From Corallococcus soli (GTDB lineage Bacteria > Myxococcota > Myxococcia > Myxococcales > Myxococcaceae), in the NCBI RefSeq assembly GCF_014930455.1, contig NZ_JAAIYO010000003.1, positions 806,001-870,000 of the forward strand: a DNA stretch of 64,000 nucleotides. Reading direction: 5' to 3'. The notes under the pieces were generated by a model. The model had not been told where the DNA came from. It did no database searches and saw nothing but the letters and a program-made list of their open reading frames with translations. Within the stretch, counting starts at the first letter, position 1. Each line of letters opens with the position of its first letter. Positions 3,911 through 57,080 of this stretch are shown here, one piece after another. Both the position numbers and the translations under genes were made by a program.

Positions 3911-4117
3911 ATGCTCCCCACCGCGAAGAAGATTGGAAAGACGTTGCTTGCCCTCACGACTGGCGCTGTCTTGTCGTTTGGGGCCACGATGGCCTTTGCC
4001 GCTCCGGAAGCGTCCGTGAAGCTGTGCATCCCCGCCGAGTGCAATTCCAGCTGTCAGGCCAGCGGCGCAGCCGGCGGGGCCTGCCTTCGCGGCCAGTGCG
4101 GATGCTATTTTTTTTGA
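3911..4117 (+). CDS. Exported defensin-like peptide (CS-alpha-beta cysteine pattern)
   Basis: This 68-residue precursor has a clear signal peptide: KK near the N-terminus, hydrophobic TLLALTTGAVLSFG, and a cleavage site after AFA at residue 30. The predicted mature peptide of 38 residues has six cysteines spaced C-x4-C-x3-C-x9-C-x4-C-x-C, with GAC supplying the Gly of the G-x-C element. This is the CS-alpha-beta defensin signature (C2-x3-C3 helix clamp, G-x-C4, C5-x-C6 beta hairpin). Myxobacterial defensin-like peptides are known, for example from Anaeromyxobacter. AGAGGA at 3901-3906 precedes the ATG. A -24/-12-like element (GG at 3848, GC at 3860) lies about 50 bases upstream but could be chance. 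The gene is monocistronic. An antimicrobial role is inferred from the fold only. Confidence 0.8.
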   Translation: MLPTAKKIGKTLLALTTGAVLSFGATMAFAAPEASVKLCIPAECNSSCQASGAAGGACLRGQCGCYFF

Positions 4118-9263: not shown

Positions 9264-10721
9264 TCAGGGAATCACTTGCAGGTCGGTGTGGCGGACGCGC
9301 ACGGCCGGATCGCCGAGCATCACGTAGTTGCGTGCGTCGTTGCGTTCGATCCACCGGTGGATGAGCTCGCGGGGCGTCATCTTCCCGTTGGGCGTGTTGG
9401 CATCCAGGTGGGTCAGCAGGAGGTTGTTGAGATTGGAGTAGCGGTCGCGGAAGTCGCGCAGCGCATAGCCTACGGGTTGGCCGGACATGATCAACGCGAG
9501 CGAGTTGTTGAAGGGCTGGACGTTGGACTGCACCAGGTTCAAGGGCTTGATGGAGAAGCCCCAGGCCCGCTCCACATGGCCAATGACCGCCAGCGCGCCT
9601 CCGCCAGGGTGGGACAGCAGCCTCCGGGGCAGGGCCGCGACGAAGGCGGCCTGGGCGAGCGCTTCGCCCCGGCGGGTGGGGTCGAGCGGGAACTCGTCAT
9701 GGGAGGGCGTGCCGATGCCGAAGCAGGCGAAGAAGAAGGCCACCAGCCCGTGGAGCCGGGCGTCGTCCTGGATGTCCGCCGCCGACACGTAGTGCGCGGG
9801 AGACATCGCGCCGAAGCCGCTCCAGTCCTGGCTCAGCAGCGCCCCCTGGTCCGTCAACTGGCGTGGATCCTTCGCGGGAAAACCGAGGCCGTGAGAGGCG
9901 GTGAAGAGCACGGCCGGACGCGACTCCCGGCCGTGGAGCGCGCCGAGCAGCCACTCCTTGGTCGCGTCGTCTTCGATGGCGGCGGTGTTGGTGTAGCGCA
10001 GCTTCGCGGCGATCGTCTTCGTGTAGTGGGGTTTCTCGTTGGCGGGGGCGCCCCGGGCGAGCGTCGTGACGAGCTCGTCCGCGCTGAGGTGCGTGGAGCG
10101 GTCGCCCAGGTGCTTCGGGGCCCACCAGCTCACCTGTCGGTGGTTGGGGACCGTGGCCGCCGTCTCGTAGGCGACGACGCTCTCCGCGTAGCGCATGTAC
10201 TCCGCGGGGGTTTCGAAGGAGAGGCGACCGACGTAGTAGGAGAGGGACAGCGCGTGCTGCACGTCGTACGGGATGTCGTCCGGTCCGCCCACGAGGAGCA
10301 GGTAGGCCGGCACGCGCGTGGGCTCCACGTCGCCGACGCCGACCGCGTAGCGCGCCAGGAACTGATGGGATGTCTCCCCGGGCTGGTAGGTGAGGACGTG
10401 CATCCGGTCCGCTTCCACGAGGCCGCGACGGTGGGCGATGAGCGGCTCCAGGCTCTTGCGGAGTTCCTCTGACGCCTGCGCGTGGAACACCACGCCCCAG
10501 CCGGCCTGGACGGGGTTCGTGGGGTCCACGTCGAAGGGCAGGAAGGTCTTCGCGCCCATGGGCACGACCTGGAGCCACTGCTTCCACGCGTCGAAGTAGG
10601 GGGCATCCCCTTTGGGGTCAGCCACCTCCGCGGCCGCCGGGAGTTCGACGGGCGGCACCAAGTACTGACCGGTGACGCCGTCGATGCCGTTGAGGACCAG
10701 CGGTTCTTCGGGATTGGACAT
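9264..10721 (-). CDS. Clan CD cysteine peptidase-like protein (C25/CHAT-like)
   Basis: This 485-residue protein has no signal peptide. A His in AVLFTASHGLGFP (about residues 270-282) is followed some 60 residues later by a Cys in GLVAFFFACFGIGTP; both end predicted beta strands, as the catalytic His and Cys do in gingipains, CHAT proteases and caspases. The C-terminal YVMLGDPAVRVRHTDL resembles the (Y/L)GDPxxRL ending typical of C25-type domains. The N-terminal 200 residues include PAYLLLVGGPDDIPYDVQ, another C25-like feature. No death-fold or TPR domain is present. The metallophosphoesterase gene follows within 15 bases. The fold call is moderately strong; the activity and target are not known. 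Confidence 0.65.
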   Translation of the reverse strand: MSNPEEPLVLNGIDGVTGQYLVPPVELPAAAEVADPKGDAPYFDAWKQWLQVVPMGAKTFLPFDVDPTNPVQAGWGVVFHAQASEELRKSLEPLIAHRRGLVEADRMHVLTYQPGETSHQFLARYAVGVGDVEPTRVPAYLLLVGGPDDIPYDVQHALSLSYYVGRLSFETPAEYMRYAESVVAYETAATVPNHRQVSWWAPKHLGDRSTHLSADELVTTLARGAPANEKPHYTKTIAAKLRYTNTAAIEDDATKEWLLGALHGRESRPAVLFTASHGLGFPAKDPRQLTDQGALLSQDWSGFGAMSPAHYVSAADIQDDARLHGLVAFFFACFGIGTPSHDEFPLDPTRRGEALAQAAFVAALPRRLLSHPGGGALAVIGHVERAWGFSIKPLNLVQSNVQPFNNSLALIMSGQPVGYALRDFRDRYSNLNNLLLTHLDANTPNGKMTPRELIHRWIERNDARNYVMLGDPAVRVRHTDLQVIP

Positions 10722-11097
10722 GGCTCCCAGTCTAGGCGGTCCCGCCCACCTGGGAACGCGGATGCCCCCGCCATGTCGGGCTCAAGGCGCTTGACCGCGG
10801 GGCCTGGTTGCCCGCCGACCTCGACCTCCGACTCCAGGGCCATGTGTCGAGCACCCACCATCCTGCCTGCCCCACGGGGCACCGGCGCGCGTCAGCGTCG
10901 TGGCAACCCCCTACGGCCTTCCCCGCACGCGGTTCGCGTCTGGCTGGAGTTGTGGCGTGAGGATGCGTGCCTTTGATTTCGTCAGGGCTTTGGCCCGATG
11001 CGTCTGGCATTGGAGGGAATGTCTGTGTTCAGCTTCGTTCCGCGTCCGGAGCGATGGCACCCCTCGCCCTCGTGGCTGGCCGCTTGGGAGAACACCC
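10722..11097. other. 376-base intergenic region between divergent operons
   Basis: This stretch separates the leftward peptidase/phosphoesterase pair from the rightward lanthipeptide genes and must hold both promoters. I see no convincing gene on either strand, no long inverted repeat and no clear -24/-12 or -35/-10 element. GGGAGA at about 11085 is the ribosome binding site of the precursor gene. Confidence 0.6.
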
Positions 11098-11295
11098 ATG
11101 ACGAAGAATCCCGAAGTCCTGGATGTGGTGAAGGGCTGGCTGTCCGGCGCCGAGTCGTCCCACGGGATGGAGAACCCGGCGGGCCCGCTGTTCGTGGGAG
11201 GTGCGCGCACGGAGCAGGCGCTCACCGAGTCCCAGCTGGTGGCGGACACGGGCTGCAGCAGCTGCACCGCGTCCCTCCACGTCCACTGTTGCTGA
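11098..11295 (+). CDS. Class II lanthipeptide precursor peptide
   Basis: This 65-residue peptide is directly followed by a LanM gene. The leader (about residues 1-52) is acidic with an amphipathic helix and ends LTESQLVADTG, close to the L-x-x-x-x-L-x-x-V-x-GG pattern of class II leaders, though with TG in place of GG. The likely core is CSSCTASLHVHCC: four Cys and four Ser/Thr in thirteen residues. A second GG at residues 34-35 (LFVGG) is an alternative processing point. The ATG at 11098 has GGGAGA about seven bases upstream. The locus context and composition make the lantibiotic-type role likely; ring pattern and bioactivity are unknown. Confidence 0.85.
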   Translation: MTKNPEVLDVVKGWLSGAESSHGMENPAGPLFVGGARTEQALTESQLVADTGCSSCTASLHVHCC

Positions 11296-11395
11296 CGCCC
11301 CGCTGAAGTCCCCTCCGGCCCGGATCGCCCGTTCCGGCGCCGGAGGTCCTCCCCGTGTGTCCCCTCCAGTTCCCACCCCCAGGGAGCCCCACCGC

Positions 11396-14260
11396 ATGGT
11401 CCACGCGGAAGCAACGGCCGCCTCCGACATTCCCCCCACCGGCTGGCTCGCGCGCCCGGTGGACGTCCTGCTCGCGCCCCACCTGGACGCGCTGACGGAG
11501 CGCCTGTCCCGGATGGAGGACCTTGCTCCCTCCGAGCGCGAAGCGGTGGACTCCGCCGCCCGGGAGGCGCTGGGCTTCAGCGCCCAGCTCAAGCTCAACC
11601 GCGTGCTGCTGTTGGAGCTGCACGCGGCGGGGCTGGAGGGGCGGCTGGATGCCCCGGACTCACCAGGACGGTGGGCGCAGTTCCTCGACCACGCCTGCAC
11701 CCCTGGCTTCCATGCGCACCTGCGCGAGCGCTACCCGACGCTCCTCACCCGGCTGTCCACCGTGGGCCGGCTCCAGACGCAGGCCGTGCAGCGGCTGGTG
11801 GACCGGTTCGTCGTGGACCGGGACGCGCTCGGCACCCTGCCGGGGAGGCCTCGCGGCGCGCTCACCCGCCTGCGGCTGGGCCAGGGGGATGCCCACCGGG
11901 GGGGCCAGACGGTGGCCCTGCTGGAGCTGGAAGACGGGACGGTGCTCTACAAGCCTCGCTGCATGCGCGTGGACCGCGCGCTGGAGGAGCTCCTGGGGCG
12001 GCTGCTCGCGCCGGATCCCAGCGCCACGCGGATCCGGGTCCCCGCCGTGCTGGTTCGCGCGGGCTACGGCTGGGCGGAGTTCGTGGAGCACCGCGCCTGC
12101 GAGGGCGAAGCCGAACTCGCGCGCTTCTACCGCAACCTGGGGCACTGGCTGGCGGTGATGCGCCTGCTGGGCGGCACCGACCTGCACTCGGAGAACCTCA
12201 TCGCGCAGGGGCCCGTGCCCGTGGTGGTGGATGTGGAGAGCCTCTTCACCCCGGATCCCCCCGTGCCGCCGGCTGGCCGTGGGCTGGCGGTGGACATCGC
12301 CGCGAAGGCCATCCGGGGCACCGTGCTGCGCACCGGCCTGCTCCCCGTGCGCAGCGGCGGGCCGGGCCTGGGGGGCCTGGACATCTCCGCCGCGGGCTCG
12401 CTCCCTGGTCAGCAACCGCGCATCCCCGGTCCCACCATCGTCGGCGGCGGCACCGACGGGGCCCACCTGGGCATGGTGCTCCTGGAGCGCCCTCCGGCGA
12501 AGAACCACCCCAGTCGGGAGCCCGTGCTCGGCCGCTACTGGGATCAGGTCATCGAGGGCTTTGGCGAGCTCACCTCCCGCATGAAGTCCCTGGATGCGCA
12601 CGGCGACCTTCGCCCGTTGCTGGAGCCGTTCATGGGCGCGGTGGTCCGGCGCATCCTGCGGCCCACGCAGACGTACGCGGAGCTGATGCGCATGCTCTGG
12701 CACCCGGCCTCGCTGCATGACGCCCCCAGGGCGCAGGCGCACGCGAGGGACGTGATGCGCCGCAACGCGGAGGTGTCTCCCGGCGCGCCCGCCACGCTGC
12801 CGCTCATCGACGAGGAGATCGCCGACCTGTGCTCCGGCGACATCCCCGTGTTCACCGTGCCCGTGTCCCGGGTGCTGCTCGAATCGACGCTGTCCGTCTG
12901 GCGCTCGGTGGACGTGGCGCTGGAGGAGGCGACCATCCGGAGCACGCTGGTGAGCGCCTACCTCAACGAGAAGTCGCTGCCCCCGCGTGTCACGGCCCCC
13001 GCGGCGCCGCCTCGGCGGGAGCGGCTGGACTCGCGGCGACGGGCGCAGCTGTCCGCCCTGGTCCGCCGCGTGCTCGACGCGGCCGTGCGCGGGCCGGACG
13101 GCACGGTGACGTGGATCAGCCCGGTGCTCGCGGAGTTCGGCTGGGCGGTGCGGCCGCTCTCCGCGGAGCTCTACAGCGGGCAGGGCGGGGTCGCGGTGTG
13201 CCTGGCCCAATACCAGCACGAGGTCCGCCTGGGGCGGTCGGATCCGGTGGAGGGGCTGGACGCGACGCTGGAGGGCACGCTCGCCGTGCTGCGCGCCACG
13301 GAGGACCGGGTGCCGGTGAAACAGCCGGGCGGGTTCTCCGGGCTGGCGTCGCAGGTGTGGATCTGGTCGACGCTGCACGACCTGGCCGCCGTGCCCGGTG
13401 CGCTGGAGCGGGCCCGTGAGCGCGCGGAGGTGCTGACGCCGGAGCTGCTCGACGAGGATGGCCTGCTGGAGGTGCTGGGCGGCGTGGCGGGCGTCATCGT
13501 TCCGCTGCTCAACCTGGTGGATCAGACGGGCGAGGCCCGGTGGCTGGCGCTCGCCGCGCACGCGGGCCGGCGCCTGGAGGACACCGCCCGGAGCGTGGCG
13601 GGCGACGCGCGCTGGGAGACGTCCATGTTCCCCGACGCCATCGGAGGCTTCGCCCATGGCACGGCGGGCATCGGCTGGGCGCTGGCGCGGCTGGGGTTGA
13701 GCGCGGCGGGCTCCGCGGCGGACCGGCGGCGGTGGCGGGCCCTCTCCGAGCGCGCCTTCGACTTCGTGGAGGGCCTGTACCGGCCGGAGTTCGGCAACTG
13801 GAGCGACGTGCGGCGCCCGGAGGCGAGGGACCAGCTGACGAGCTGGTGTCACGGGAGCACGGGCATCGGGCTCGCCGCGGCGGACCTCTGCGCGCGCACC
13901 GGGGAGGCGCGCTACCAGCAGCTTTTCCAGCGGGCCCGGAGCGCGGGCCTGCGCGAAGGCCTCGGGTGGACCCACACGCTGTGCCATGGCGACCTGGGCC
14001 TGTGGGAGCTGCTGGAGGCAGGGCGGCGGCTGGCGCTGGAGCCGCAGGGGGCGGAGCGGGAGGCGCTGGATGCGGAGCTGCTCTCCGGCCTGGAGGCGCG
14101 AGGCCCGGTGGCGGGGCTCGCGCGGGACGCCTTCTCACCGGGGTTGATGGCGGGGCTGGGCGGCGTCATCCACACGCTGCTGCGCATGCACCCGGAGAGT
14201 CGGCTCGCCTCGCCCTTGTTGCTGGGCCGGGCGCCCGGCGTGGACCGGGGCGCGCCCTGA
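11396..14260 (+). CDS. lanM: Class II lanthionine synthetase LanM
   Basis: This 954-residue bifunctional enzyme dehydrates Ser/Thr in the precursor and closes thioether rings. The N-terminal dehydratase (DUF4135, to about residue 560) keeps the kinase-like residues: TVLYKPR near 182, LGGTDLHSENLIA near 261 and VVDVESLF near 278. The C-terminal LanC-like cyclase (from about 610) keeps all three zinc ligands, Cys in SWCHGSTGIG near 816 and Cys-His in TLCHGDLG near 861. I chose the ATG at 11396, with AGGGAG nine bases upstream; the frame is open further left but overlaps the precursor gene. It lies 100 bases after the precursor. No transporter, protease or immunity gene follows. Confidence 0.95.
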   Translation: MVHAEATAASDIPPTGWLARPVDVLLAPHLDALTERLSRMEDLAPSEREAVDSAAREALGFSAQLKLNRVLLLELHAAGLEGRLDAPDSPGRWAQFLDHACTPGFHAHLRERYPTLLTRLSTVGRLQTQAVQRLVDRFVVDRDALGTLPGRPRGALTRLRLGQGDAHRGGQTVALLELEDGTVLYKPRCMRVDRALEELLGRLLAPDPSATRIRVPAVLVRAGYGWAEFVEHRACEGEAELARFYRNLGHWLAVMRLLGGTDLHSENLIAQGPVPVVVDVESLFTPDPPVPPAGRGLAVDIAAKAIRGTVLRTGLLPVRSGGPGLGGLDISAAGSLPGQQPRIPGPTIVGGGTDGAHLGMVLLERPPAKNHPSREPVLGRYWDQVIEGFGELTSRMKSLDAHGDLRPLLEPFMGAVVRRILRPTQTYAELMRMLWHPASLHDAPRAQAHARDVMRRNAEVSPGAPATLPLIDEEIADLCSGDIPVFTVPVSRVLLESTLSVWRSVDVALEEATIRSTLVSAYLNEKSLPPRVTAPAAPPRRERLDSRRRAQLSALVRRVLDAAVRGPDGTVTWISPVLAEFGWAVRPLSAELYSGQGGVAVCLAQYQHEVRLGRSDPVEGLDATLEGTLAVLRATEDRVPVKQPGGFSGLASQVWIWSTLHDLAAVPGALERARERAEVLTPELLDEDGLLEVLGGVAGVIVPLLNLVDQTGEARWLALAAHAGRRLEDTARSVAGDARWETSMFPDAIGGFAHGTAGIGWALARLGLSAAGSAADRRRWRALSERAFDFVEGLYRPEFGNWSDVRRPEARDQLTSWCHGSTGIGLAAADLCARTGEARYQQLFQRARSAGLREGLGWTHTLCHGDLGLWELLEAGRRLALEPQGAEREALDAELLSGLEARGPVAGLARDAFSPGLMAGLGGVIHTLLRMHPESRLASPLLLGRAPGVDRGAP

Positions 14261-14273
14261 GCGAGGGTGCTAC

Positions 14274-19472: not shown

Positions 19473-20771
19473 GTGGCGATCCGGCTTGCCGTTCTGGTCC
19501 TGCTTCTAGCTCTTGTCGGTGCGTGCACCACGCCGCGAGGAATACGCCTCGACACAGGTTCCGGGGCGCCAGTAAGGATCCTGCCGCCCAGTTCGAACAA
19601 ATCGGTGGAGGTGGATGCGGAAGCGTTTGAAGAGGCGCTGACGCAATGGGTGCTGGAGATACCGCTGCCCCTCCGCTCCTCACGCCAGCAGTGGCTGGTA
19701 CATGCGTCCTATCCCGGTCGCACTCAAGACCTGCGGTGGCAGAACCTGATGCGCAAGAGCTTTGGGGGCATCTGCGGCGCGGGGCAGCGCAGTGGAAACT
19801 GTCTTTCACTGCTTGATGATGTCGCAGGTTTAAGTGAGGAGGACAAGCTGGGGGTTGCTCTGGGTTTGTCGCTCGCCCCGCTGAAAGAGAGCATCTCCAA
19901 GGCGGTGGAAGACACCCTGGCCCCGCAGCTCTTCTACACGATCATCGCAACGGGGCTCATCACCTGGGCCGTATTGGCGGCCAACCCCGAACCCGTCTTC
20001 ACGAAGGCCGCAGCGGTAATCTCCGCGCTACTCCTGATCTACCTGGGGGTGGAGACCTTCTTGACCGTGGTGGATGCGAGCCGGGAGCTGAAGCGAGCTT
20101 CGGACAGAGCGACCACCTCTGGTGAACTGGGAGAGGCCGGCCGGCTCTTCGCGAATCGAGTGGGGCCTGAGGTGGCACGGGTCTTCGTCCTCGCAGTCAC
20201 CGTGGTGGTTAGCCATGGCTTGACCGGGGGAGCCACTTCCCTGGCTGGGCAGCTCCAGAAGATGCCCGCTTTCCCAGAAGCATCGCTGGTGGGGGCCTCC
20301 CAGGTCGGATTGGAGCTGGTCAACGTGGGGCAGGTTGGCGCGGTGGCAGTCGCCGGCCGCTCCGTCGTCATCTGCCTTCCCTCCACGGCGATTGCCATGG
20401 TGGCTCGGAATGCCACATTGGGAAGCTCCACGGTTGGGATCAGATCCTGGGGTTCCTTCAGCGGTCTCAAGCGCGCTTTGGGATCTGCGGAAGAGGGCAA
20501 GCAGTGGCACCATGTCGTCGAGCAGACGCCCGGCAACGTCGGTCGATTTGGCCCTGAAAGCATCCACAATTCCGAGAACGTCATTCAGCTTGAGCAAGGT
20601 TTGCACAAGCGACTGAGCGGATTCTACTCATCGATTCAACAGGAAATCACCGGTTCAAGGAGCCTGACGGTGAGACAGTGGCTGAGTACGCAATCCTACG
20701 GGTCCCAACGTGATTTCGGATTGCAGGCAATCGAGAAGGTCCAGAAGCGGATCTGGGGGGTGTGGAGGTGA
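19473..20771 (+). CDS. SitA-type lipoprotein toxin with C-terminal WHH nuclease-like domain
   Basis: This 432-residue protein has a lipoprotein signal ending LVGAC (Cys18) and the N-terminal block IRLDTGSGAPVRILPP shared by SitA5-family polymorphic toxins of Myxococcus, which move between kin cells by TraA/TraB outer-membrane exchange. Hydrophobic segments near residues 150-190 and 230-260 are typical of the delivery part. The C-terminal effector (from about 340) has KQWHHVVEQ, followed by SIHNSENVIQLEQGLHKRLSG, an HNH/AHH-like layout with His, Asn and a second His, suggesting a nuclease. The start is GTG. The immunity gene overlaps the stop by four bases. The class is firm; the nuclease activity is an inference. 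Confidence 0.85.
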   Translation: MAIRLAVLVLLLALVGACTTPRGIRLDTGSGAPVRILPPSSNKSVEVDAEAFEEALTQWVLEIPLPLRSSRQQWLVHASYPGRTQDLRWQNLMRKSFGGICGAGQRSGNCLSLLDDVAGLSEEDKLGVALGLSLAPLKESISKAVEDTLAPQLFYTIIATGLITWAVLAANPEPVFTKAAAVISALLLIYLGVETFLTVVDASRELKRASDRATTSGELGEAGRLFANRVGPEVARVFVLAVTVVVSHGLTGGATSLAGQLQKMPAFPEASLVGASQVGLELVNVGQVGAVAVAGRSVVICLPSTAIAMVARNATLGSSTVGIRSWGSFSGLKRALGSAEEGKQWHHVVEQTPGNVGRFGPESIHNSENVIQLEQGLHKRLSGFYSSIQQEITGSRSLTVRQWLSTQSYGSQRDFGLQAIEKVQKRIWGVWR

Positions 20772-21133
20772 GTCTCGATGAACTCGTGGCGGTTTTTGCT
20801 CAGAATGTCATGGCCCAGAACGACGCGATCTGGCGTGGAGATGCGAAGACGGGAAACAGGTATGCGAAGAAAGTGAACACCGCCTTCGACAAGTTGACTG
20901 CTCAGGGCGACGTCGGACGTGATGCTCTGGCTGCTTTGTTCATGCACCCTCGCATGGATGTTCGCGTCAAGGCGGCAGCCTTTCTCCTCCGGCACCGGAC
21001 GGAAGAAGCCAAGGCCGTCCTGAAGGAGGCTGCACGAGGACAGGACCTCGTGTCCTTCGCGGCCTCCGAAGCGTTGAAGCGATGGGAGGAGGGGACCTGG
21101 GCTTTGGATCCAGAACTGCCTTCAAGTTCCTGA
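20768..21133 (+). CDS. DUF2019 protein, likely immunity partner of the SitA-like toxin
   Basis: This protein of about 121 residues matches DUF2019, a small HEAT-like helical family common as immunity proteins: LVAVFAQNVMAQNDAIWRGD, then RDALAALFMHPRMDVRVKAAAFL and FAASEALKRWEEG. It has no signal peptide, as expected for a cytoplasmic antidote. The GTG at 20768 overlaps the toxin stop as GTGA, and a run of six G stands about eight bases ahead; an in-frame GTG at 20762 is also possible. Tight coupling to the toxin and position directly after it support the immunity role, which is an inference by analogy with SitI proteins. Confidence 0.8.
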   Translation: MSLDELVAVFAQNVMAQNDAIWRGDAKTGNRYAKKVNTAFDKLTAQGDVGRDALAALFMHPRMDVRVKAAAFLLRHRTEEAKAVLKEAARGQDLVSFAASEALKRWEEGTWALDPELPSSS

Positions 21134-51106: not shown

Positions 51107-53893
51107 TCACCTGGGAGCCCGGGCCCCCAGGTGCCCCGAGGGCCGCCGCGTGAAGGCCCCCAGCGCGTCCAGCAGGTCCTCCGTCATGCGCTCCGCGCTG
51201 GGATGCCAGGGCGTGGTGAAGCGCGCGTCCATGCTCGTCTGCCGGATGGTGGACAGCCACGCGTGCACCTCGCGTTCGGAGTAGCCCGCGCTCCGCGCCG
51301 CCTCGTGCAGCAGGGAGTACTCCCGGAGGAGGAAGGTGGAGAAGGTGATGGGGTCGTCCGCGCCCACCGCGATGGGCACCGGCGGCGGCGCCCCCGCTTC
51401 GGATCGCGGCGGGAAGAGGCGCAGGATGGGGTGGTTGCGCAGGTCCAACAGGTTGCCGATGAGCAGGTTGCTGGAGGGATTCACCTCCACGACGGTCCCC
51501 CGCGCCCCCACGTACCGGCGCAGCGCGTCCTGCGCGGCCCGCAGCGCGGCCACCTCCGCCGCATCCAGCGGGATGTCCACCAGCTGCTGACCGCGCCGGA
51601 ACACGGGCTCGTCCTCGCGGTACGCCTCGATGAGCTCCTGGACGCGCTGGGAGTCGCGCACCCGGACCCAGTCCAGCCGTCGGGAAGCCCGGCTGAAGGC
51701 GTCCAGCCCCACTCCCACGCCCTCCTGCGCCAGGGGCGGACACCAGAGGTTGTGCAGCACGTGGTGGGCTTCCGCCAGGACGTGTGGCGCGATGCACCTG
51801 CCGAAGATGCCCTCGGACAGCTCGCGGATGAGGTTCTCCACCTGCGGCGGCCGTCCCGGCGGGGTGTCCACGCTCAGGCCCGGGGGCAGCCGGTAGCCGC
51901 CGTACAGGCGCCACTCGAAGACCAGGTCCCACAGCCGCTCCTCGGCCGGCATCATCACCGCGCCAACCGACTCCGCCCACGTCCCTGGCTCCACCCCCAG
52001 GGACGTGGCGTGTCCCAGCCGCCCGCCCCGGTGGTCCAGCAGGTAGTGCAGGCATTCGTAGATGCGGCGCAGCCCCTCCATGAGGTGCCGGTAGTCCTCG
52101 CCCACGTGGCCCGTGAGCTGGAGGGGGGGGGCGCCCCGGGCCGCCGGCCGGACCGCGGCGCGGGCGGCCTCCCACCGCACGTAGCGGTACAGCGGCGCCA
52201 GCACCCACGTGGGCACGCTCAGCTCGTCCGACGCGACGTCCAGCCCCCGCACCAGCCAGAGCGACAGCGGCACCGCCCGCAGCAGGTCCACCAGCGCCTC
52301 CACCCGCGTCGACTGCGAGACGAAGTAGTCCGCGTAGCGGCCTCCCAGCCGGATGAGGCCCTCCGGAACCGGCTCCGCGTACGTGCCCTGGGCATGCGCG
52401 GGCGGCAGGCCCTCCCTCCAGTGGCGCTTGGGGTCCCGCGCCTTGAGCAGGTGCAGCACCAGGCCGAACTCCGGCTGACGGCCGTCGCTGGTGGCCCGCC
52501 CCACGCGCGCCAGCACCCGCTGCCACGAGCGCGTCAGCCCCCACAGCTCCTCCGCCATCTGGATGGAGGTGTCCATGAGGCGGGTGCGCACCTCCAGCGC
52601 GGCGATGGGTTGATCGCCCCCCGCCACCGCGTAGGAGATCTCCGCGCGCACGGCGTGCAGGGGCCGCTTCATCGCGCCCAGGCGATCATAGAAGCGGATG
52701 AACCACTGGAGGCCCGCGGTCAGCGGCCGCTGCACATAGGTGCGGTAGCTCAGGCAGCGCACCCGCTGCACCTGCCAGAAGAGGCGCTCGAAGTGCGGAT
52801 CCGGCGTGCCGGCCTCTTCCATCCGCCGCATCCACCGCAGCCCGTAGCGCACCAGCCAGCGCTCCCCCGCGTTGGGCGTGTGCAACCCCATCCGCAGGGC
52901 GATGGGATCGCACCGCCGCCACACGTCGTCGAGGGTCTCTGGAGCTTCGGCGCCGCCGCGGGCCGCCAGCGGGTGGAGATCCCCGTAGAGCTCGCGCAAC
53001 TCGTCCACCTCCGGCAGGACTTCCAGGCGAGCGCGCGAGAGCGCCTCCAGCGTCCGCTCCAGCACCCGGCGGCGCTGGGGCAGCCAGACGGACGACTCGC
53101 GCAGGCCCGCCACGAAATCCAACAGCGGCCGCTTCCCACCTCGCAGGATGACCTCCGCCAGGACGCAGCGGGACACCGCGGCCGCCAGCAGCCAGCGGAG
53201 CATCGTCCCGCCCTCGCCGAAGACGAGCCCCGGTCCCGACAGCAGGCGTGCATCCAGGGACGGGTCCGCGATGGCGGACAGCAGCGAGGTCCACAGCAGC
53301 GGGAAGTCCATGCCCGCGTTGACGTGGTGGTGGACTTCCGTCACACCCCGGTCCAGCAGGTGGCGCATCAGCAGCGGCGGTTCAATGTCCACCCGCGTGG
53401 GCGGCGGCTCCACCGGCACGGCCGACATCAACAGGTCCTCGGGCAGGGCGAAGGTGAGCCAGCGGTAGTGCGTGACGGCGTCCACCGCGCCGGCCTCCGT
53501 GTCCTGCGCCACGACGGTGACCCCGGGCCGGCGCTCCAGGTGGGTGTCCGCCAGGTGCACCAGGTAGCTGGCCATGGACACCCGCCGCGGCGGATCCCGC
53601 TGGCCGCGGATGTGCCGGCGCGAATCGAACCAGAACACGTCCCTGACGGCGATGAGGCGATCCAACGACCAGCCGCTGGCGTGCTCCGACAGGGTCTTCT
53701 CGCAATCGCGCCAGAGCGCCCGCGTGGGGCCCGCGTCGTGTCCCTCCAGCGAGGGCACCAGCTCCGTCAGCGCGTCCCTGAAGGCCTGGAGGCTGGTCAG
53801 CGGGAAGCAGGCCACCTCCGCGCGCACGTAGGCCTCCGGAACGCGGCGGGGGGCCAGGTTTCCCTGGGACTGGCGCGGTCCCTCAGTGCCCAT
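51107..53893 (-). CDS. rdrB: RADAR adenosine-deaminase-like protein RdrB
   Basis: This 928-residue protein has the adenosine deaminase active-site set spread over a much enlarged frame: VTEVHHHVNAG near 183 (H-x-H), LTGHVGED (H-x-G-E, catalytic Glu), GGRLGHATSLG (zinc His), VEVNPSSNLLIGN, HPILRLF and IAVGADDPITFSTFLLREY (Asp-Asp). Housekeeping deaminases are about a third of this length; the large size together with the linked ATPase identifies RADAR. RdrB forms large shells with RdrA and deaminates adenosine in RNA or adenine nucleotides during phage infection, stopping growth. Its ATG at 53893 overlaps the rdrA stop by 11 bases. Confidence 0.88.
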   Translation of the reverse strand: MGTEGPRQSQGNLAPRRVPEAYVRAEVACFPLTSLQAFRDALTELVPSLEGHDAGPTRALWRDCEKTLSEHASGWSLDRLIAVRDVFWFDSRRHIRGQRDPPRRVSMASYLVHLADTHLERRPGVTVVAQDTEAGAVDAVTHYRWLTFALPEDLLMSAVPVEPPPTRVDIEPPLLMRHLLDRGVTEVHHHVNAGMDFPLLWTSLLSAIADPSLDARLLSGPGLVFGEGGTMLRWLLAAAVSRCVLAEVILRGGKRPLLDFVAGLRESSVWLPQRRRVLERTLEALSRARLEVLPEVDELRELYGDLHPLAARGGAEAPETLDDVWRRCDPIALRMGLHTPNAGERWLVRYGLRWMRRMEEAGTPDPHFERLFWQVQRVRCLSYRTYVQRPLTAGLQWFIRFYDRLGAMKRPLHAVRAEISYAVAGGDQPIAALEVRTRLMDTSIQMAEELWGLTRSWQRVLARVGRATSDGRQPEFGLVLHLLKARDPKRHWREGLPPAHAQGTYAEPVPEGLIRLGGRYADYFVSQSTRVEALVDLLRAVPLSLWLVRGLDVASDELSVPTWVLAPLYRYVRWEAARAAVRPAARGAPPLQLTGHVGEDYRHLMEGLRRIYECLHYLLDHRGGRLGHATSLGVEPGTWAESVGAVMMPAEERLWDLVFEWRLYGGYRLPPGLSVDTPPGRPPQVENLIRELSEGIFGRCIAPHVLAEAHHVLHNLWCPPLAQEGVGVGLDAFSRASRRLDWVRVRDSQRVQELIEAYREDEPVFRRGQQLVDIPLDAAEVAALRAAQDALRRYVGARGTVVEVNPSSNLLIGNLLDLRNHPILRLFPPRSEAGAPPPVPIAVGADDPITFSTFLLREYSLLHEAARSAGYSEREVHAWLSTIRQTSMDARFTTPWHPSAERMTEDLLDALGAFTRRPSGHLGARAPR

Positions 53894-56597
53894 GGCCTGG
53901 GTCCGCCTGGAGCTCCTGCACGGGAGACACCCTGCGCAGCGCCTCCAGCTCCAGGTGGTCGCCCTCCTGGTCCATGACCCGGAACCACGTCCGCACCACG
54001 GTGTCGAGCCAGTCGTAGTACAGGCCCGTGAGCTGGCCTCCGTCCGTGCCCAGGTGGCGGCGCAGCGCCTGTGACGCGCCGGAGCGCCCCACCGCGGCGC
54101 GCACCATCTGTTCGCGCAGCCGCGTCAGGCGGGGCCCATGGTGCTCCCAGTAGGCCACCAGTTCGTCCCAGTCCTCGTTCTCGCCCGCCTCCCCGGACTG
54201 CCAGCGCAGCAGTTCGCTGAGGGCGGGGGCCGGCGCGAACTCCGGCAGCACCAGCAGGGGCAGCGCGTTCTGCAACCACACCCGGGCCGTCCACAGCCGA
54301 TCCGAGCCCACGCTGTTCGTCCGGATGTCCTCCACGAGCTTCGCCACCGTGCCGCGCACCCGCTGCTCGTAGGGCTCCAGCGCGCTGGCGCGCTCCCGCG
54401 CCAGGATCACCGCCTCCACCCCCCTACCGTGTGCGTCGCCCCAATCCCATCCACCCAGCTCCCGGCCCGACACCGAGCAGATGTTCTCCACCCAGGCCGC
54501 CTGGATGAAGCGGTGGTGGGAGCCGACCTTCATGCGCGAGTCCTTCATGTTGTCGACCTTGAAGAACCCGTCCGCCGTCCGCTTCAGGAACGCCTTCCAC
54601 TGCGCGGTGAAGATGGCGAACTCGACGAAGGTCTTCCAGGTGGGAAGGCTCCACCAGCACTCTACCTGGACGAGCGGTTCGTGGGGCGCGGCCTCCACCC
54701 ACAGCTCGTGCAGCGTCACGACCAGCTCCGGGCTCATCTCGAAGGGGGTCACGTCCAGGTTCAGCACCCGGGGCGGTTCGAACAGCATCAGCGCGTCGTG
54801 CAGCAGCATGAACCAGCCGGTCACGTTGCCGGGCAGGGGCACGCTGTGGCCCGGCCGGTCCAGGTCGCTCAGCATCAGCACCACGTCATGGAAGTGCCGC
54901 AGGTGCAGCTCGCTGAGGAGCAGCCGCTGCTCCGTCTTCGCGGCGCCATTGCCCGGTCGCCCCGCGTGCGGCCACTCCAGGACGTCCGACAGGGTGGTCC
55001 GCTTGGAGCGGCGCACCGGCTTGCCCGTCAGGTCCAGGAAGATGAGCCCCTTTTCGTCATGGCGGAGGATGCGGTTGTTCAACTGCTGGCTGGCCCAGGC
55101 CGGCAGGTCGCTTTCGTCAATGGCGTTGCGCAGCATCTCCGTGACCACCCGGACGGTGCGCTCCCCATCCGCGACGGAGGGCTCTTCCGAGGAGGCGCGG
55201 GTGCTCCAGAGTTCGCGCCGGGCGGCGTGCCAGAGGTCCTGCAGGGTGCGCGCGGGCAGGTGGAGGGCGAGCTTGCCCGCAGGGGTGAGGATGACCTTGC
55301 GCAGGGGCGCGTCCCGCGCATCCCGCGTGGCCAGGCGGTAGGTCGTCTTCACCGTGTCGGAGAGCCGGGGCGCCAGGTTGATGAGGTCCGCGAAGGAGGT
55401 CAGCACCTGCGTCTTCTCCCGCGTCGGGGCGCAGGGCAGCCTGAGCTGCTCCAGCAGGCTGCCCAGCGTCTGCGCTCCGTCCTCCGCCTCCACCCCCAGC
55501 GGGCGGAAGTCCCATGCCTTGTAGGGATCCACGGGGCCCAGGTTGATGCGGTAGCTGGGGGGCAGCGCGCGGCGCAGGGTGGTGGCGGACTGGCGCCGGG
55601 CGATGGAGAGCGTCTCGTCCTGGCCCACGACCCCGATCCCCGCCTGCCCGGAGAGGATGAGCTCCTTCTGGAAGGAGCGCTCCATGAAGAGCTGGAACTC
55701 CTGGTGGCCCGCGGCCAGCACGAACCAGAGCCGGGGGCTGGCCACCATGCGGGTGAGCTTCACGATGTTGTGGAGGTGTTCGATGCTGCGGTCCACGTTG
55801 TCGATGGGCAGCACGAGGATGACCTGCTCCCCCCTGGCGGTGCCGAAGCGGGGCAGGGACAGCGTCTTCGCCACGTTCTCCATGGCCCCCGCGAAGCGCT
55901 GCTGGAAGTTGGCGTAGATCTCCGCGGCCTTGATCTGCTGCTCCGCGCGCGCGCGCGTGTCGGTGGTCGACGCGCTGTCCTCCCACATGAACGAGGCATC
56001 CCGGATGAGGTGATCCAGCTTTCCCCAGGCCTCCTCCGCGCTCTCCTCGAGGATGGAGGAGGACCACCTGCCATGCCCGCCTCGCGCGGCCGTGCCCTCC
56101 TGGGGCGCATCCAGGGCCGCGCGCACGCGCACCAGCAGGGTGGCCAGGAGGTTGGCGCCCGGGGGCACCGGCTCCAGGTCGAGCGGCTCCAGCCAGACGA
56201 CGCGCCCCTCGATGCGCTCGAGCGTCGTGCACAGGTCCCTGCGCATCGCCTCCGGCCCCGAAGCCACCGCCTCGCGGGCCTCCGCCTCCAGGCGCGCGCC
56301 CGGCTTCAGCCCGAGGAAGGCCCTCCAGTCCCGCAGGGCCTGGACGGCGCTGAGCAGGACGGTGGTCTTCCCCGCGCCCCGGGGACCGGAGATGAGCAGG
56401 CTGGTGGAGAGGTGCTCGTCCCGGACCTCTCGCTCGCCCTGGCTGCATCCGCAGGCGGCCTCCAGCCAGGACAGCAGCTCGTACAGCCCCCGCTGCGTGG
56501 GCTCCAGCAGCTCATCCCAGGGGAAGGCCCTGGCCTCGGGGAGGGGCGTGGGCACGTAGTGGTGCGTCTTGCCCGGGAGGCTCGTTTTCGGGTCCAT
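53883..56597 (-). CDS. rdrA: RADAR ATPase RdrA
   Basis: This 904-residue protein is a large P-loop ATPase: Walker A LLISGPRGAGKTTVL near residue 72, a Walker B-like VILVLPIDNVDRSIEHL near 260, then LWFVLAAGHQEFQLF. A Trp-rich C-terminal half (WVEAAPHEPLVQVECWWSLPTW, GGWDWGDAHG) has no obvious domain. Linkage and overlap with the deaminase gene identify it as RdrA, which forms a heptameric cage delivering substrate to RdrB. I chose the ATG at 56597, where the conserved DPKTSLPGKTHHYVPTPLPE begins; the open frame upstream is low-complexity shadow. No ribosome binding site is evident. Confidence 0.88.
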   Translation of the reverse strand: MDPKTSLPGKTHHYVPTPLPEARAFPWDELLEPTQRGLYELLSWLEAACGCSQGEREVRDEHLSTSLLISGPRGAGKTTVLLSAVQALRDWRAFLGLKPGARLEAEAREAVASGPEAMRRDLCTTLERIEGRVVWLEPLDLEPVPPGANLLATLLVRVRAALDAPQEGTAARGGHGRWSSSILEESAEEAWGKLDHLIRDASFMWEDSASTTDTRARAEQQIKAAEIYANFQQRFAGAMENVAKTLSLPRFGTARGEQVILVLPIDNVDRSIEHLHNIVKLTRMVASPRLWFVLAAGHQEFQLFMERSFQKELILSGQAGIGVVGQDETLSIARRQSATTLRRALPPSYRINLGPVDPYKAWDFRPLGVEAEDGAQTLGSLLEQLRLPCAPTREKTQVLTSFADLINLAPRLSDTVKTTYRLATRDARDAPLRKVILTPAGKLALHLPARTLQDLWHAARRELWSTRASSEEPSVADGERTVRVVTEMLRNAIDESDLPAWASQQLNNRILRHDEKGLIFLDLTGKPVRRSKRTTLSDVLEWPHAGRPGNGAAKTEQRLLLSELHLRHFHDVVLMLSDLDRPGHSVPLPGNVTGWFMLLHDALMLFEPPRVLNLDVTPFEMSPELVVTLHELWVEAAPHEPLVQVECWWSLPTWKTFVEFAIFTAQWKAFLKRTADGFFKVDNMKDSRMKVGSHHRFIQAAWVENICSVSGRELGGWDWGDAHGRGVEAVILARERASALEPYEQRVRGTVAKLVEDIRTNSVGSDRLWTARVWLQNALPLLVLPEFAPAPALSELLRWQSGEAGENEDWDELVAYWEHHGPRLTRLREQMVRAAVGRSGASQALRRHLGTDGGQLTGLYYDWLDTVVRTWFRVMDQEGDHLELEALRRVSPVQELQADPGHGH

Positions 56598-57080
56598 GGA
56601 GAAGGATAGGGAGACCGCGTCGCGACGCGCATCACCCGGAATCAGATCGCACGTCCGCGCGTGGTAGCTGGCAGGTGTCCCCGTGCGCTCGTCCCCCTGT
56701 CTGTCGCCGGTTTCCGGGAGCGGGCTGCCGGGCCGCGCCCTGGAGCACGAAACGGACGAGGGCCGCGTCGTCGGGATACCGCCTCGCGGCGAGCGCCCAT
56801 CGGACCGCGGAAGATTCGTGAGTCGCTTGGACGCCCCCCGCCACATCCGGTGTTCCAATTTTTTTCCCATCCCCGGAAGCCGGGGACCGCAGTCCGCTGG
56901 TTCAAGCTCGCGCGTGTCCAGCCCGCCTCGCGAGGGCACTTCGCGGGACACGCGCCAACACCCGCGCTGGACCCGGGCCCTGTATCCGCCGATCGCGTCT
57001 GGCTCTATCAGTCCGCCTTGAGCAGCAGGCCGGGACTCTTCTCACCTGCCGCTCTATCCGCAGCGCCAGGAGGCAGCTCA
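56598..57080. other. 483-base divergent intergenic region
   Basis: This separates rdrA (leftward) from the repeat-protein gene (rightward) and must contain both promoters. No gene is convincing on either strand. A small hairpin, TCCCCGG-AAG-CCGGGGA, lies at 56870-56886, with a T7 run at 56859-56865 before it on the + strand, the wrong order for a terminator. No protein-coding or RNA family was recognised. Confidence 0.55.

What the first reader, a model, noticed from the sequence alone, without database searches (positions are those of the whole stretch)
11098..14260. Minimal class II lanthipeptide locus with a 13-residue four-Cys core and no exporter
A precursor with likely core CSSCTASLHVHCC is followed by a LanM with intact dehydratase and zinc-site residues, but no LanT, protease or immunity gene lies on either side. 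The core ends CC and has His-x-His, and the leader ends TG rather than GG. Very small cores of this composition are unusual.
Basis: partly seen in the sequence, partly recalled or inferred. Interest (0 to 1): 0.75.

Follow-up and report, generated by a model that had tools for sequence, protein, structure and literature searches.

The report
Two-gene lanthipeptide locus of DUF6229 type
This is a genuine two-gene set for making a small sulfur-bridged peptide, belonging to a peptide family already shown to be lanthipeptide precursors; nearly the same gene pair, without export genes beside it, occurs in most Corallococcus species and in many Streptomyces.

Summary
The locus is real. lanA (11098-11295, 65 aa) is a clear member of Pfam DUF6229 (PF19740, E 1.5e-26). 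That family's Dyella member, rhodanocin, was shown by mass spectrometry and NMR to be a class II lanthipeptide (PMC9576775). lanM (11396-14260, 954 aa) is a complete class II synthetase with all catalytic and zinc residues, and the only full LanM in this genome.

Among 96 Myxococcaceae genomes, the same 29 carry the precursor and the close LanM. Some 50 Streptomycetaceae also carry the pair, with near-identical cores (TGCSS[CP][ST][AG]Sxxx[YWFH]CC). So the core is not unusual, and "TG|C" is probably not the leader boundary. The family's conserved GG lies 17 residues upstream of Cys53. Thr51 is probably a ring residue: Thr-x-Cys-x-x-Cys-Thr-x-Ser matches rhodanocin's ring residues in spacing, and Thr51 is lost whenever Cys56 is lost (22 versus 17 distinct peptides; at least two independent losses).

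The missing exporter is confirmed. No C39 domain lies near any of 87 loci, and two genomes with lanAM have no C39 at all. A sister group instead has lanA-lanM-ABC exporter-FAD oxidase. Verdict: a new group within a known family. Leader removal, export and function remain unknown.

The parts
11098..11295 (+). lanA, 65-aa DUF6229 lanthipeptide precursor MTKNPEVLDVVKGWLSGAESSHGMENPAGPLFVGGARTEQALTESQLVADTGCSSCTASLHVHCC
   Evidence: translation; PF19740 92.5 bits (cut-off 25); homologues
11173..11202 (+). conserved leader motif NPAGPLFVGG (residues 26-35), with the family's double-glycine at 34-35
   Evidence: N26-P30, G34 and G35 invariant in 39 distinct peptides
11248..11292 (+). probable ring-bearing region, residues 51-65 (TGCSSCTASLHVHCC)
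   Evidence: C53, S54, C64, C65 invariant; T51 co-varies with C56; residues 60-63 the most variable stretch
11396..14260 (+). lanM, class II lanthipeptide synthetase, 954 aa (DUF4135 dehydratase plus LanC-like cyclase)
11312..11346 (+). RNA hairpin between lanA and lanM, conserved in 8 of 10 Corallococcus; possibly a partial terminator or stabiliser setting the lanA:lanM ratio (inferred)
   Evidence: z -2.7
11002..11030 (+). genus-conserved upstream element GTCTGGCATTG-N11-TGTGTTC, probable promoter or operator (inferred)
   Evidence: single exact copy in the genome
10727..14273 (.). segment holding only lanA and lanM; replaced by unrelated genes in the nearest relative G023
   Evidence: flanks about 92% identical and contiguous, segment absent

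Best explanation
A two-gene class II lanthipeptide locus of the DUF6229 (rhodanocin-type) family. Shown by sequence: family membership of both genes, intact LanM active sites, strict co-occurrence and adjacency of lanA and lanM, and no exporter or C39 protease beside this group in any genus examined. Inferred from established LanM chemistry: LanM binds the leader (N-terminus plus NPAGPLFVGG), phosphorylates and eliminates Ser/Thr in the C-terminal part, and adds Cys thiols to give (methyl)lanthionines. The best guess for the rings, by analogy with the rhodanocin NMR structure and by co-loss, is Thr51-Cys56 (fairly supported), Cys53-Ser59 (reversed direction, weaker), and Thr57 to Cys64 or Cys65, with possibly a fourth ring from Ser54/Ser55 to the other terminal Cys. 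The leader would be removed and the product exported, if at all, by enzymes encoded elsewhere; the cut site is not known and may be after GG35 or further on. The confidence given is for the identity and general mechanism; for the three-ring assignment as a whole it is about 0.45.
For: lanA matches PF19740 over profile 6-62 of 62 at E 1.5e-26. DUF6229 members are experimentally lanthipeptide precursors (PMC9576775). LanM: TIGR03897 494 bits, LicM2 and CylM homology with aligned catalytic motifs, residues invariant in 77 LanMs. It is the only protein in the genome joining DUF4135 and LanC, and lanA is the only DUF6229. The same 29 of 96 genomes have both genes. The only neighbour shared across genera in this group is LanM. 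No C39 hit in 87 loci; G016 and G024 have lanAM but no C39 anywhere. Thr51 present in 22 of 22 peptides with Cys56 and in 0 of 17 with Pro56; the tree forces at least two Cys56-to-Pro changes. Purifying selection on lanA, pN/pS 0.54.
Against: No product has been observed. The ring pattern is inferred. In C. sicarius, C. llansteffanensis and strain CA053C Ser59 is Cys while Cys53 stays, so Cys53-Ser59 cannot be general. The terminal Cys lies closer than in rhodanocin and there is one more Cys. The co-loss rests on only two independent events.
Confidence: 0.87

Rival explanations
1. The precursor is processed and exported by the NHLM-type transporter set (HlyD, C39-ABC, second ABC) about 12.5-19 kb upstream, so the locus is only apparently exporter-less.
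For: A C39-ABC gene with its D-C-G motif lies at G000:C3:799738 onwards, just outside the window. lanA has a GG with hydrophobic residues before it.
Against: In other genomes no C39 lies near lanA. G016 and G024 carry lanAM without any C39. LahT150 did not cut the rhodanocin GG (PMC9576775).
Confidence: 0.1
2. The C25-type peptidase encoded next door (9264-10721, minus) is the leader peptidase, so the unit is really three genes.
For: PF01364 match E 3.3e-9, immediate divergent neighbour in the Corallococcus loci examined.
Against: Also present in G023, which lacks lanAM. At E <= 1e-60 it was found in no genome outside the genus, though lanAM occurs there.
Confidence: 0.08
3. LanM no longer makes a lanthipeptide from this peptide (relic), or LanM serves another precursor.
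For: No exporter or immunity gene; no product known.
Against: All catalytic residues invariant, lanA under purifying selection with invariant Cys, strict pairing across phyla, no other DUF6229 in the genome.
Confidence: 0.04

Closest known systems
Rhodanocin (LanII product of Dyella sp. 333MFSha; DUF6229; PMC9576775)
   Same: Same precursor family (Pfam DUF6229), class II LanM, and Thr-x-Cys-x-x-Cys-Thr-x-Ser with the same spacing as the residues that form its three rings (Thr6-Cys11, Cys8-Ser14, Thr12-Cys23).
   Different: Terminal cysteines come 7-8 residues after Thr57 rather than 11, there is one extra Cys (vicinal CC end), and extra Ser54/Ser55. Dyella is a gammaproteobacterium.
DUF6229 class II loci of Lysobacter (PMC11451712; L105, L111)
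   Same: DUF6229 precursor plus LanM; CC at or near the end.
   Different: Different Cys/Ser/Thr layout; that preprint finds six families among Lysobacter precursors.
Myxococcus/Pyxidicoccus/Luteimonas DUF6229 loci (L108, L110, L119, L129, L106)
   Same: DUF6229 leader with NPAGPLFxGG, LanM about 44% identical to this one, CC end.
   Different: Core RCGT[AG]C[TS]GSxxxxCC; LanM followed by an ABC exporter without C39 and a FAD/BBE oxidoreductase.
LanII-2B of Archangium violaceum (PMC9576775)
   Same: Class II lanthipeptide of a myxobacterium.
   Different: Its core was released with LahT150, a C39 protease that cuts after GG; it is reported as group LanII-2B, not as DUF6229.

Membership tests
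Class II lanthipeptide (LanM system) | Bifunctional LanM: DUF4135 dehydratase plus LanC-like cyclase | tested here: met
   PF13575 324.9 bits, PF05147 116.9 bits, TIGR03897 494 bits vs cut-off 304
Class II lanthipeptide (LanM system) | Catalytic dehydratase residues and Cys-Cys-His zinc site | tested here: met
   K186, D262, H264, N267, D279, R422, T424; C818, C863, H864; invariant in 77 LanMs except one T424S
Class II lanthipeptide (LanM system) | Product carries (methyl)lanthionine | not testable with these tools
   needs co-expression and mass spectrometry
DUF6229 (PF19740) precursor family | Score above Pfam's gathering cut-off over the profile | tested here: met
   92.5 bits vs 25, profile 6-62 of 62
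DUF6229 (PF19740) precursor family | NPAGP-x(3)-GG leader motif and C-terminal Cys-rich segment next to a LanM | tested here: met
Rhodanocins | Thr-x-Cys-x-x-Cys-Thr-x-Ser spacing of ring residues | tested here: met
   residues 51-59 against positions given in PMC9576775
Rhodanocins | Single terminal Cys 11 residues after the third-ring Thr | tested here: not met
   Cys64 and Cys65 lie 7 and 8 residues after Thr57
Rhodanocins | Ring connectivity by NMR | not testable with these tools
   experiment needed
LanT (PCAT)-processed class II lantibiotics | C39 peptidase-ABC exporter in the cluster | tested here: not met
   none beside lanAM in the window or in 87 related loci; absent from the whole genomes of G016 and G024

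The most novel reading that the evidence does not exclude
A self-contained lanA-lanM unit without exporter, protease or immunity gene, with a nearly invariant core shared between two phyla of lysing, sporulating, multicellular bacteria (Corallococcus and relatives; Streptomycetaceae and Amycolatopsis), making a lanthipeptide that acts inside or between sister cells (a developmental signal or structural peptide released by programmed lysis) rather than a secreted antibiotic.
Probability: 0.12. Interest if true: 0.75.

Novelty: new member of a known kind. Interest (0 to 1): 0.38.

Why it matters
In the literature searched, DUF6229 has one structurally solved product. This work defines a large exporter-less group of the family spanning Myxococcota and Actinomycetota, gives a testable ring assignment (Thr51-Cys56) from paired losses, and shows that the usual C39 route for class II leaders cannot be general for it. 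It turns 'where are the protease and exporter?' into a question that can be answered with single-gene knock-outs in tractable strains.

Tried and rejected
(all-against-all BLAST of every ORF) timed out and was replaced. Searches failed because my first coordinates were off by one base. Considered and rejected: C39 NHLM cluster 17 kb upstream as dedicated exporter (not conserved); C25 neighbour as dedicated protease (genus-resident); other DUF4135 proteins of the genome as rival synthetases (they lack LanC); sigma-54 promoter reading of the upstream element (GG-GC spacing does not fit). Literature search for the core strings found nothing, but that library lacks most subscription journals and supplements.

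Full report
What is there. The window comes from a myxobacterium that falls in the same genus as named Corallococcus genomes: the G030 contig of 29,989 bases that carries its lanA matches in length NZ_RAVZ01000089, C. terminator. An ATG at 11098, behind GGGAGA, opens a 65-codon ORF ending at 11295. One hundred bases on, a 954-codon ORF runs from 11396 to 14260. The long ORF is a full LanM: PF13575 and PF05147 in Pfam, TIGR03897 at 494 bits against a cut-off of 304, and homology to the solved structures of LicM2 and CylM. Lys186, Asp262, His264, Asn267, Asp279, Arg422 and the zinc ligands Cys818, Cys863 and His864 are invariant in all 77 related LanMs aligned here; Thr424 is Ser in one.

The precursor is not an orphan. 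It scores 92.5 bits (cut-off 25) against PF19740, DUF6229. Two papers in the searchable library name DUF6229. PMC9576775 expressed a DUF6229 peptide from Dyella with its LanM in E. coli, found four dehydrations and three rings, and solved the connectivity by NMR: Thr6-Cys11, Cys8-Ser14 and Thr12-Cys23. It named the group rhodanocins and noted that DUF6229 covers at least two ring layouts; LahT150 did not cut the peptide despite its possible double-Gly motif. PMC11451712 reports DUF6229 in 21 of 27 distinct Lysobacter precursors.

Distribution. In Myxococcaceae, 29 of 96 genomes have DUF6229 and the same 29 have a close LanM; in the loci read with both on one contig they are adjacent. No further hit was found among 195 Myxococcota genomes. 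A scan of one genome per species gave 75 loci: Corallococcus, Myxococcus, Pyxidicoccus, about 50 Streptomycetaceae, Amycolatopsis, Lysobacter, Luteimonas, Burkholderiales and some other Actinomycetota. All loci with enough downstream sequence have LanM directly after the precursor.

Two gene layouts. Loci with RCGT[AG]C-type cores (Myxococcus, Pyxidicoccus, Luteimonas, a Burkholderiales MAG; also Kutzneria with GCGTAC) have an ABC exporter without a C39 domain directly after LanM; a FAD/BBE oxidoreductase follows in the Myxococcus/Pyxidicoccus and Luteimonas loci. Loci with TGCSS[CP]-type cores, including the window, share nothing across genera except LanM. No C39 domain was detected in any of 87 loci with up to 10 kb each side, and scattered ABC hits in this group lie at unrelated positions. 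In the window's own genome two C39 genes exist: one in an NHLM-type exporter set about 12.5-19 kb upstream of lanA, outside the window, and one in a separate lantibiotic-dehydratase cluster near C3:913000. G016 and G024 have lanAM and no C39 at all. The exporter-less layout is therefore real and conserved, and dependence on C39 is unlikely.

The unit. In G023, about 92% identical in the flanks, window 10727-14273 is missing and replaced by about 8.9 kb of other genes on an unbroken contig. Exactly lanA, lanM and the upstream region form the variable segment. The C25-type peptidase upstream (9264-10721) is present in all 16 genomes of the genus, G023 included, and was not found at E <= 1e-60 in any other genus tested, so it is a resident neighbour rather than a conserved partner.

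Where is the core? In 39 distinct peptides of this group N26-P30, G34, G35, E39, L42, C53, S54, C64 and C65 are invariant. Residues 60-63 are the most variable stretch (pN/pS 1.1 there against 0.54 overall in ten Corallococcus). Thr51 is present in all 22 peptides with Cys56 and is Gly or Ala in all 17 with Pro56. On a LanM tree the Cys56-to-Pro change is needed at least twice on well-supported branches, once for Streptacidiphilus and once for the Streptomyces/Amycolatopsis group, and Thr51 went with it both times. Thr51-Gly-Cys53-Ser-Ser-Cys56-Thr57-Ala-Ser59 also has the same spacing as rhodanocin Thr6-x-Cys8-x-x-Cys11-Thr12-x-Ser14. The Cys53-Ser59 ring is less sure: three Corallococcus peptides have Cys at 59. 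The true cleavage site is unknown.

Expression. A hairpin between lanA and lanM (11312-11346) is kept in 8 of 10 Corallococcus, and an upstream element (11002-11030) is kept in the genus and has one exact copy in the genome. Both are inferred regulatory parts.

Function is inferred only. Rhodanocin has weak anti-Klebsiella activity (PMC9576775). The lack of exporter and immunity genes and the near-constant core in over 30 Streptomyces would also fit a non-antibiotic role; this is a speculation with low weight. PMC8960859 shows that unlinked proteases mature other lanthipeptides, which is the default expectation here.

Verdict. A genuine, intact class II lanthipeptide pair; a new group within the known DUF6229 family; the exporter-less feature is true and conserved, while the tiny-core and unusual-composition claims are not upheld.

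Noticed in passing
L138 2676-11529 (G023:C1281), opposite window 10727-14273: The lanAM site of the nearest relative holds instead a CHAT-domain protein (PF12770, E 8.6e-18) and a 1728-aa protein with a weak AAA/NACHT-like match (below cut-off): a site of alternative cargo, possibly defence.
   Followed up: partly
window 51107-56951 (-): RdrB-like adenosine deaminase (NF041744, 146.8 bits, below its 800 cut-off) next to a protein with a weak RdrA match: a divergent RADAR-like pair.
   Followed up: no
window 19473-21133 (+): SitA5-family polymorphic toxin (NF050093, 233.8 bits, over cut-off) followed by a DUF2019 protein that may be its immunity protein.
   Followed up: no
window 3911-4117 (+): 68-aa putative secreted Cys-rich peptide ending CIPAECNSSCQASGAAGGACLRGQCGCYFF; no family above cut-off.
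   Followed up: no
G000:C3:798449-804575 (L040 12449-18575): HlyD, C39-ABC and second ABC protein, resembling an NHLM-type export set, just upstream of the window.
   Followed up: partly
L109: Record named Comamonas sp. KCTC 72670 carries a Myxococcus-type locus on a contig of the same length (361,476) as G066:C10: probably a mislabelled genome.
   Followed up: no
window 11002-11030: GTCTGGCATTG-N11-TGTGTTC, conserved upstream of lanA in Corallococcus and single-copy in the genome; L128 has the first half.
   Followed up: partly
L022-L024, L048-L050: In C. sicarius, C. llansteffanensis and strain CA053C the core is CSACT[GA]CAD..CC with five Cys: Ser59 became Cys and Ser55 Ala, so a different ring set is expected.
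   Followed up: no
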